In this document: piece after piece, positions 13,969-52,296 of the stretch
How the letters are laid out: every line of letters starts with the position of its first letter
How positions within the stretch are numbered: position 1 is the stretch's first letter
Source: Stieleria neptunia
Lineage (GTDB): Bacteria > Planctomycetota > Planctomycetia > Pirellulales > Pirellulaceae
DNA length: 64,000 nucleotides
Assembly (NCBI RefSeq): GCF_007754155.1
Contig: NZ_CP037423.1
Location: 4,278,001-4,342,000 of the forward strand
Reading direction: 5' to 3'
Made by a program: the position numbers and the translations under genes
The notes under the pieces: generated by a model
Databases searched by the model: none
Seen by the model: the letters and a program-made list of their open reading frames with translations, nothing else
What the model was told of the DNA's origin: nothing

Positions 13969-14084
13969 GGGCTGTCGTTTTAGTCGGGATCTGCTGAGTC
14001 AATGGTGAGCCGCTGGCCGTAAGGCCTCGGGCAGCGTCGCAGTGCCCGGCCGCTTACGTGTCGCGGCTCACAAAACGACAGCCC
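13969..14084 (-). mobile_element. MITE-like palindromic element, family B copy 1
   Basis: The element is bounded by GGGCTGTCGTTTT and AAAACGACAGCCC (perfect inverted repeat) and has inner arms GTGAGCCGC / GCGGCTCAC. It is in the orientation opposite to copies 2-4. It begins one base after the msrB stop. Its right flank GCTGGCGCCCTACCGCTAAAAAATGC resembles the right half of an A-family repeat; the left half is missing. Confidence 0.8.
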
Positions 14085-15997: not shown

Positions 15998-16114
15998 GGG
16001 CAGTCGATTTTGTGAGCCGCGACGCGTAAGCGGCCGGGCATCCCGCCGTTGCCCGAGGCCTTACGGCCAGCGGCTCACCATTAACGCAGCAGATCCCGAC
16101 TGAAACGACAGCCC
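15998..16114 (+). mobile_element. MITE-like palindromic element, family B copy 2, with 6-bp flanking direct repeat
   Basis: This 117-bp element has ends GGGCAGTCG and CGACAGCCC. Flanking direct repeats GCGAGC lie at 15992-15997 and 16115-16120. Removing the element and one repeat restores an A'-type sequence (TAGCGGAACGGCGCGAGC then CATCCGGTC), the reverse complement of the family at 26465. The target is thus an existing repeat. Confidence 0.85.
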
Positions 16115-26464: not shown

Positions 26465-26546
26465 GATGCGACCGGACGGCTCGCGCCGTTCCGCTAACAC
26501 ATTGAGAGCCAAAGTAAGTGACATTGGGCGCAAGCCCTCCGGTCGG
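26465..26546. repeat. Palindromic repeat, family A' (uninterrupted copy)
   Basis: GACCGGACGGCTCGCGCCG plus TTCCGCTAAC is followed by a conserved tail (AGAGCCAAAGTAAG) and a degenerate inverted core (GCGCAAGCCCTCCGGTCGG). This is the uninterrupted form of the site that carries a B element at 52057 and, in reverse, at 15998. Confidence 0.8.
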
Positions 26547-38803: not shown

Positions 38804-39027
38804 AGTGATCGTCGTGGATTAAATGATCGTTGCGGGGAAACGGAATCGAGGTCGTAAATTCACCCAAGAATCGAGAGAATACGGCGTTATCGATGATCCG
38901 TCAATCGCGGGGGCGTCCGGGCGGGTTGCATCTCGGCACGTGGCGTCAGCCCGTGGCGCGTGTGAGGATCAAAATCGCACCACGCGCCGCTCGCTGACGC
39001 TTCCCGCTGGGGTGCCGCTCGCTGACC

Positions 39028-39146
39028 GGGCTGTCGATTGAGTGAGCCGCGACGCGTCCGCGGCCGGGCATTTCGGCGCCTGCCCGAGGCCTTACGGCCA
39101 GCGGCTCACCATTGACTCCGCAGATCCCGATTCATTCGACAAGCTG
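39028..39146 (+). mobile_element. MITE-like palindromic element, family B copy 3 (diverged)
   Basis: GGGCTGTCGATTGAGTGAGC begins the element, and GCGGCTCACCATTGACTCC lies near its right end. The right end (ATTCGACAAGCTG) is diverged, and no clear flanking direct repeat remains. Nearby CGCTTCCCGCTGGGGTGCCG and GCGTCCCGCCGGCGTGCCG are another short repeat type, seen again at 39662-39690 and 39842-39862. Confidence 0.75.
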
Positions 39147-39830: not shown

Positions 39831-39878
39831 ATGCGCCGGTCGCTGACGCGTCCCGCTGGGGTTTTGGCTCGGGCCCGG

Positions 39879-51989: not shown

Positions 51990-52050
51990 TGTTTGCGGTA
52001 GGGCGCGAGCCCTCCGGTCTTTCAAGGTGTTTTTGATACGCGACCGGACG
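51990..52050. repeat. Families A and A', left part
   Basis: GCGGTAGGGCGCGAGCCCTCC is an inverted A core. It is followed by GCGACCGGACGGCTCGC, the left half of an A' element whose right half resumes at 52176. Confidence 0.75.
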
Positions 52051-52056
52051 GCTCGC

Positions 52057-52175
52057 GGGCTGTCGATTTTGTGAGCCGCGCGCCGCGTAAGCGGCCGGGC
52101 ACTGCGACGTTGCCCGAGGCCTTACGGCCAGCGGCTCACCATCGACTCAGCAGAAACCGACTAAATCGACAGCCC
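52057..52175 (+). mobile_element. MITE-like palindromic element, family B copy 4, inserted in an A' repeat
   Basis: This 119-bp element has perfect 13-bp terminal inverted repeats (GGGCTGTCGATTT / AAATCGACAGCCC). Direct repeats GCTCGC flank it at 52051-52056 and 52176-52181. The outer flanks, CCGGACG and GCCGTTCCGCTAACAC, join in the uninterrupted copy at 26465-26546. Insertion with a 6-bp target duplication explains this directly. Confidence 0.9.
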
Positions 52176-52296
52176 GCTCGCGCCGTTCCGCTAACACCTT
52201 CAGAGCCAAAGTAAGCTGACGCATGTGGGCTTTCATCGACAGGCCGTTGACGCGTTCCACAACCCCCGAAACACCAGAGCTGACGTCTCACGCGTC

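What the first reader, a model, noticed from the sequence alone, without database searches (positions are those of the whole stretch)
52051..52181. Family B palindromic element inserted into an A' repeat with a 6-bp target duplication
The B element (52057-52175) has perfect 13-bp terminal inverted repeats and is flanked by direct GCTCGC. The outer flanks rejoin as the intact A' copy at 26465-26546, down to the conserved tail AGAGCCAAAGTAAG. This is the signature of a non-autonomous transposable element about 119 bp long whose target is another repeat. The element is also a long hairpin (GTGAGCCGC / GCGGCTCAC, GGCCGGGCA / TGCCCGAGGCC).
Basis: seen in the sequence. Interest (0 to 1): 0.8.

Follow-up and report, generated by a model that had tools for sequence, protein, structure and literature searches.

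The report
Tiny transposon nested in palindromic repeats
A 121-base passenger transposon has inserted into the loop of a repeated DNA hairpin in a planctomycete bacterium, and a relative of that bacterium carries a full-size transposon with nearly the same ends that mostly picks the same hairpin.

Summary
Window 52057-52175 is a small element with terminal inverted repeats inside a REP-like hairpin (A), with GCTCGC on both sides. The orthologous intergenic gap of Rhodopirellula sp. SM50 has the intact A site without the element. The genome holds hundreds of copies (324 first-look candidates, 40 scored). In a 1.66-Mb sample, 29 of 38 near-full-length copies have at least one A arm and 22 have both.

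An autonomous partner was found in genome G012 of the same genus (contig length equal to CP036432.1, strain TBK1r): a 1,991-bp IS1182-family insertion sequence in 36 copies of at least 99% protein identity. It has nearly the same ends; 15 of 22 examined copies lie between two A arms and 5 beside one.

One correction: informative insertions (IS copies L212, L215, L216; E-type sites) fit a 4-bp duplication, here CTCG. The element then ends in C...G and spans 52056-52176 (121 bp, 14-bp inverted repeats).

So this is a REP-targeting MITE related to an IS1182-family element. No close transposase was found in this genome. MITEs, IS1182-like MITEs and REP-targeting ISs are known; their combination was not met in seven literature searches.

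The parts
52056..52176 (+).
52056..52069 (+). left terminal inverted repeat CGGGCTGTCGATTT
52163..52176 (-). right terminal inverted repeat (AAATCGACAGCCCG on +)
52052..52055 (.). target duplication CTCG, left copy (apparent 6-bp GCTCGC 52051-52056)
52177..52180 (.). target duplication CTCG, right copy (apparent 6-bp GCTCGC 52176-52181)
52043..52051 (+). left arm of the interrupted REP-like hairpin A (ACCGGACGG)
52181..52194 (+). right arm of the interrupted hairpin A (CGCCGTTCCGCTAA)
51992..52022 (-). second, uninterrupted A-type REP in opposite orientation upstream (REPIN-like pair with the interrupted one)
   Evidence: D8, I14, I16; also present in SM50 and S. sedimenti
52071..52139 (.). 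internal long hairpin of the MITE (GTGAGCCGC 52071-52079 / GCGGCTCAC 52131-52139) with inner stems
13969..14084 (-). further B1 copy, A arm on one side only
15998..16114 (+). further B1 copy inside A, GCGAGC on both sides
39028..39145 (+). further, degraded B1 copy inside a different repeat (E), TGAC on the left and TGAT on the right; empty E copies at 38984-39013 and 39833-39862

Best explanation
The element is a miniature inverted-repeat transposable element (MITE) that an IS1182-family DDE transposase moves in trans. The transposase recognises the [C]GGSCTGTCGRTTT ends and joins them across the loop of a host REP-like hairpin (GGC-TCGC-GCC) with a 4-base stagger, so that loop bases CTCG are duplicated. 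Shown: inverted repeats, empty orthologous site, high copy number, position-specific targeting, an autonomous IS in the same genus with nearly the same ends, mostly the same target position and the same kind of duplication, and MITE and IS side by side. Inferred: that this transposase, or one like it, moved the copies in this genome, where a close one was not found; and the order of strand joining.
For: Empty orthologous site in SM50 with a single GCTCGC. Abundance: 53 profile hits in a 1.664-Mb sample, 324 first-look candidates of which 40 were scored. Target: 29 of 38 near-full-length sampled copies have at least one A arm, 22 both, against 129 uninterrupted A sites in the same sample (at most 4 substitutions). 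Autonomous IS: 36 copies of at least 99% protein identity in G012; IS1182 equivalog NF033551, 329.1 bits against a cut-off of 270; DDE_Tnp_1_6 and DUF772; 15 of 22 copies between two A arms, 5 beside one, 2 in neither; ends GGCCTGTCGGTTTAGT against GGGCTGTCGATTTwGT in B1. MITE and IS lie directly next to each other in L208 and L221. All 22 IS copies have C before and G after the ends; 19 of 22 have a perfect 4-bp and 16 of 22 a perfect 6-bp duplication. The same ends occur with three different interiors in five genomes and two genera, so the ends define the mobile unit. B orientation relative to A is unrelated to B sequence similarity (nearest-neighbour agreement 0.467 against 0.50 shuffled, p 0.63, n 33).
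Against: No close transposase in G000, G002 or G005, which hold many copies (best in G000 21% identity, none at all in G002 and G005, both drafts); in G049 one weak PF13751 stretch below the cut-off. Similar B copies share the A subtype more often than shuffles do (0.598 against 0.394, p 0.012, n 33), and in G049 several copies share flanks beyond the target, so some copies may have spread as an A+B unit. 57 of 134 end pairs lack a perfect 4-bp duplication: decay, recombination, composite spread or false end pairs. No movement was observed.
Confidence: 0.9

Rival explanations
1. Composite repeat: A and B are parts of one mobile or recombining unit (as in BIMEs), and the direct repeats flanking B are simply halves of a larger element.
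For: Most sampled copies lie in A; A-subtype agreement among similar B copies, p 0.012; in G049 several loci share flanks beyond the target.
Against: A occurs without B 498 times in this genome at up to 1 mismatch; SM50 has A without B at the same locus; B also sits in other targets with their own duplications (GCCAGC in L147; TGAC in L140); B orientation is independent of B sequence; the IS with nearly the same ends inserts alone into A.
Confidence: 0.06
2. REP/REPIN-type element mobilised by a tyrosine (Y1, HUH) transposase of the RAYT/TIRYT kind.
For: Hairpin-rich and short; tyrosine transposases with flanking repeats are reported as plentiful in R. baltica (PMC3733652, passages).
Against: 8 Y1_Tnp stretches in this genome: in the about 1.5 kb fetched on either side, no A hairpin at up to 2 substitutions and no exact B end; B-end-like 13-mers with 1-2 substitutions occur in 5 of the 8. 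Perfect inverted ends with a duplicated target are not a feature of that family (recalled). The partner found is a DDE IS.
Confidence: 0.02
3. The duplication is truly 6 bp, and the element is 119 bp.
For: 65 of 134 end pairs have perfect 6-bp repeats, 16 of 22 IS copies too. At the window site both readings fit equally.
Against: 12 of 134 end pairs have a perfect 4-bp but not a 6-bp repeat, 8 of them with C and G on both sides. Three near-identical IS copies (L212, L215, L216; 1990-1991 of 1991 bases like the reference) fit only 4 bp, while C and G next to the ends hold in 22 of 22. Three of four sampled E-type sites have TGAC on both sides and, compared by eye with empty E copies, allow no 6-bp reading; these three may stem from one insertion.
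Confidence: 0.1

Closest known systems
MITEPye1 of Paracoccus yeei (PMC11578231, passages read)
   Same: MITE with ends like IS1182-family ISs, flanked by 4-bp direct repeats, intergenic, able to fold into a long stem-loop, presumed to be moved by IS1182-family transposases.
   Different: Reported at 1-3 copies per chromosome; no REP target in the passages read. The ends were not compared letter by letter here.
ISRm22 and other REP-targeting ISs (Tobes and Pareja, PMC1525189, passages read)
   Same: All copies inside REPs at one position; ISRm22 has 6-bp direct repeats and inserts at the palindrome axis; imperfect repeats there are explained by recombination, as proposed here.
   Different: Autonomous ISs, filed as IS4 (ISRm22) or IS3, IS110, IS256, IS5; the terms MITE and IS1182 do not occur in that text (counts 0).
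IS1272 (IS1182 family) of Staphylococcus aureus (PMC5678879, abstract and passages read)
   Same: IS1182-family element that targets inverted-repeat structures; the paper's model includes a hypothetical pathway in which only the loop is duplicated.
   Different: IS1272 is reported to replace the stem-loop, without duplication in its new insertions; here the loop is duplicated and the stem is kept.
REPs inserted in palindromes (Di Nocera and colleagues, PMC3733652, passages read)
   Same: Palindromic repeats nested within palindromic targets; REPs of that kind are also reported from planctomycetes.
   Different: There REPs are the inserted part; here the REP-like hairpin is the target and an element with inverted-repeat ends is the insert.
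IS1111 inserted in QMITE2 of Coxiella burnetii (MITE review PMC10969869, passages read)
   Same: A MITE, a REP and a REP-seeking IS in one nest.
   Different: There the IS inserts into the REP part of a MITE; here the MITE inserts into a free-standing REP.

Membership tests
MITE | Short, non-coding, with terminal inverted repeats | tested here: met
   121 bp with 14-bp perfect inverted repeats; too short for a transposase gene
MITE | Target-site duplication and an empty site in relatives | tested here: met
   SM50 orthologous empty site; duplications in many copies
MITE | Ends shared with an autonomous element | tested here: met
   IS in G012, same genus, nearly the same ends; none close found in the window's own genome
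MITE | Mobilised in trans by that transposase | not testable with these tools
   needs a transposition assay
IS1182 family (for the autonomous partner) | IS1182-type DDE transposase | tested here: met
   P0001 (575 aa of the 605-aa frame): NF033551 equivalog 4.9e-98 above cut-off; PF13751 and PF05598 above cut-off
IS1182 family (for the autonomous partner) | Preference for palindromic targets (reported for some members) | tested here: inconclusive
   15 of 22 copies between two arms of A, a hairpin by sequence. Non-A sites are only mildly more palindromic than background (mean 4.42 against 3.64 pairs, 19 distinct sites, p 0.0014; most single sites unremarkable and some related to each other). 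Empty A with flanks, as a single strand, folds no better than shuffles (z -0.36)
REP/REPIN with RAYT | Y1 transposase gene flanked by the repeat | tested here: not met
   8 Y1_Tnp loci; no A at up to 2 substitutions and no exact B end in the fetched flanks

The most novel reading that the evidence does not exclude
The target is recognised as a structure. IS1182-type transposases join their ends across the loop of an extruded hairpin and duplicate only the loop, the hypothetical loop-duplication route in the IS1272 paper. A second element (C) attacks the same kind of hairpin at its foot and duplicates the whole 12-bp stem-loop, the companion route. These planctomycete genomes would then be a natural record of structure-guided transposition, with palindromes nested in palindromes (C in B in A, seen in L056).
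Probability: 0.3. Interest if true: 0.7.

Novelty: new variant of a known kind. Interest (0 to 1): 0.52.

Why it matters
It joins three things usually treated apart: REP hairpins, the ISs that target them, and MITEs. REPs here act as landing sites, presumably harmless ones, for a parasite that has reached hundreds of copies although no close transposase was found in the genome. Because the same ends, with three interiors, hit the same loop, what the transposase reads in the target can be tested directly.

Tried and rejected
Y1/RAYT transposase as the mover: 8 stretches found, flanks negative for A and for exact B ends. A full-length IS within this genome: one search counted 125 B ends next to a GCTNGC-like core and listed 100; 40 loci around listed ends without a match were fetched. 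One search paired the ends in most of them at MITE length (one at 665 bp); the 14 loci without a pair were read. L069 and L035, which do not continue as a MITE, showed no transposase in their ORF lists, judged by eye without a family search. The 25 unlisted ends were not looked at. G012 L209 and G049 L205 orphan ends gave none either, again by eye. The two IS1182-like genes of this genome (21% identity to the G012 transposase) have other ends and sit at another position of A. The 665-bp copy in L056 looked autonomous but is B with a 535-bp element C inside. Structure-only targeting was tested and is inconclusive. Rows dropped: one search kept 45 usable B1 elements, of which 33 with two A arms entered the test (11 'other' and one hybrid dropped), 15 of 53 hits were left out as partial. 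Counts come from all loci fetched by then, many of them chosen because they hold B, and are not an unbiased sample. The sample is 80 stretches of 20 kb chosen by coordinate (about every 110 kb up to 7.5 Mb, sparser beyond) plus the window itself, which was chosen for the finding and gives 4 of the 38 copies.

Full report
WHAT IS THERE. The window at 52051-52181 reads GCTCGC, GGGCTGTCGATTT, an interior, AAATCGACAGCCC, GCTCGC. The flanks, rejoined, match the uninterrupted A' copy near 26469-26518 (from GCTCGC on 95% over 40 nt). A is a REP-like hairpin (CCGGACGGC-TCGC-GCCGTTCCG) followed by CTAA. It occurs uninterrupted 498 times in this 10.98-Mb genome at up to one mismatch, 572 times in G002 and 805 times in G005, twice in G004, and not in the other 12 of the 16 genomes searched. 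Two A copies in opposite orientation form a REPIN-like pair at the window site.

THE EMPTY SITE. A genome-collection search with the neighbouring LacI-type protein gave three planctomycete orthologues at 83-85% identity (L230 Rhodopirellula sp. SM50, L231 Stieleria sedimenti, L232 strain TBK1r; 7 loci in all, the other four distant). In SM50 the same intergenic gap holds both A copies, and the second is intact with one GCTCGC and no B (alignment). The window flanks, joined in a script, align with SM50 over 238 columns at 87.8% identity with 13 gap positions. S. sedimenti lacks the second A, and TBK1r shows neither. So the insertion is directly supported at the locus itself by one species of three; the other two are not informative.

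COPY NUMBER AND TARGET. A DNA search of the own genome gave 324 first-look candidates, 40 of them scored; 40 matches are full length or nearly so with 92-100% identity, and two more are end-only self-matches. In a sample of 80 stretches chosen by coordinate plus the window (1.664 Mb), a profile found 53 hits, 38 of them near full length: 29 have at least one A arm, 22 have both, 17 have a perfect 6-bp repeat and 21 one with at most one mismatch. The same sample holds 129 uninterrupted A copies (at most 4 substitutions), so roughly a sixth of the A sites are occupied (inference). Some copies have hybrid flanks (two 3' halves, or arms of different A subtypes), as recombination between copies would give; Tobes and Pareja explain imperfect repeats of ISRm22 in this way.

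OTHER INTERIORS, SAME ENDS. With the pattern of the two ends, 5 of 117 genomes match: the own genome, G002, G005 and G012 of the same genus, and G049 of another genus. Three interiors occur: B1 (G000, G002, G005), B2 (GCCCGCACGCGTTAGC type; G012, G002, G005, and a few copies in G000) and B3 (G049, 116 bp). Of the B2 and B3 copies read, several lie in A (L086, L187, L189, L181, L170) and many G049 copies in another inverted repeat with a GCTNGC-like core; a few, such as L082 and L188, have no clear hairpin. The ends, not the interior, thus define the mobile unit and most of its targets.

THE AUTONOMOUS PARTNER. PF13751 gave 76 matched stretches in G012. The element is 1,991 bp (L208 6854-8844) with ends GGCCTGTCGGTTTAGT / ACTAAATCGACAGGCC and one transposase frame. 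36 copies have at least 99% protein identity. The protein is an IS1182-family transposase above NCBI's cut-off. Of 22 copies examined, 15 lie between two A arms, 5 have one A arm, 2 none. In L208 and L221 a MITE lies directly beside the IS, and in L229 two ISs lie head to tail, each time with six bases between GGSC ends. No close homologue was found in G000 (best 21% identity), G002 or G005 (none); G049 has one weak PF13751 stretch below the cut-off. In a family sample of 199 genomes, with at most 6 candidates scored in each, 5 had a match at E 1e-100 or better, G012 among them. G012 is taken to be TBK1r, because the contig lengths are equal (10,769,056); that TBK1r is Stieleria magnilauensis is recalled. 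The window genome therefore probably belongs to Stieleria (inference; taxonomy).

FOUR BASES, NOT SIX. If the element ends in C...G, the duplication at the window is CTCG. At A sites both readings fit, because the loop reads G-CTCG-C. Informative cases: all 22 IS copies have C before and G after the ends, 19 have a perfect 4-bp and only 16 a perfect 6-bp repeat; L212, L215 (CATG) and L216 fit four but not six. They differ from the reference IS by at most one base, so they are recent; in L216 the neighbouring REP carries the same deviating base, so the deviation was probably there before the insertion. Among 134 end pairs of MITE size from all loci, 77 have a perfect 4-bp and 65 a perfect 6-bp repeat (which includes a 4-bp one), 120 have both C and G, 12 fit only four, 8 of these with C and G, and 57 have neither repeat. 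Three of the four sampled E-type insertions carry TGAC on both sides, the window copy TGAC and TGAT; by eye their empty copies leave no room for six. MITEPye1, an IS1182-like MITE, also has 4-bp repeats (PMC11578231).

HOW IT PROBABLY WORKS. Shown: the ends, the position in the hairpin loop, the duplication, the partner IS. Inferred: the transposase cuts at the C...G ends, attacks both strands of the REP loop four bases apart, and repair duplicates the loop. Wan and colleagues list loop-only duplication as a hypothetical route of structure-dependent transposition for an IS1182-family relative, IS1272, which itself is reported to replace the stem-loop (PMC5678879). Whether structure or sequence is read is open: non-A sites are only mildly more palindromic than background, and the A hairpin as a single strand is no more stable than shuffles.

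A SECOND HAIRPIN-SEEKER. Element C (535 bp, end AATACCGCTAAATCGAGA) sits inside a B copy in L056 with the whole stem-loop GGCCGTAAGGCC on both sides, and inside an A-like hairpin in L006 with a 12-bp duplication having 2 mismatches; these were the only two complete copies in the loci scanned. L117 and L138 show C ends against A halves. This gives a three-level nest, C in B in A.

INDEPENDENT INSERTIONS OR COMPOSITE SPREAD. B orientation relative to A is unrelated to B similarity (p 0.63), but the A subtype is related (p 0.012; n 33), and G049 shows repeated flanks. So some copies may have travelled with A.

LITERATURE. Seven searches of the open library showed REP-targeting ISs, an IS1182-like MITE and palindrome-seeking IS1182 members. 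Among the listed titles, abstract starts and passages I saw no MITE that targets REPs, and no paper holds Stieleria, transposase and repeat together (0 papers). Subscription papers are mostly outside that library. Of five papers only abstracts or passages were seen.

Noticed in passing
L056 6065-6599; L006 910-1444; [quoted passage not shown]).
   Followed up: partly
L203 6902-7261, L205 6005-6486, L178 9650-10009, L193 11320-11557 (G049): Head-to-tail arrays of the MITE with period 122 = 116 + 6 bases; internal right ends read CAGCAGGCC instead of CGACAGCCC.
   Followed up: partly
L229 98-4085; L208 6733-8844; L221: IS-IS and MITE-IS tandems with six bases between; the junction (end, core, end) is itself a palindrome with the target core on its axis.
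   Followed up: no
within L119 11519-13134 (A halves included) and L237 (G000): A second IS1182-like element (448-aa frame, ends by eye AGGCTGTGAATAATTGG / CCAATAATTCACAGCCT), two copies, both inserted into A at another position with CGGAG on both sides.
   Followed up: partly
window 39028-39145; L093 7333-7450; L140 7554-7671; L152 16543-16660: B copies in another repeat (E, GCGCCGCTCGCTGACGCTTCCCGC); three carry TGAC on both sides, the window copy TGAC and TGAT.
   Followed up: partly
L230-L232 upstream of the lacI-type gene: Presence and absence of the A repeats themselves at an orthologous locus: two in SM50, one in S. sedimenti, none in TBK1r.
   Followed up: no
L113 4073-4372: Short tandem repeat with the unit GGAAGGGCCGTCGTAC..., period about 34, seen as chance end pairs.
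   Followed up: no
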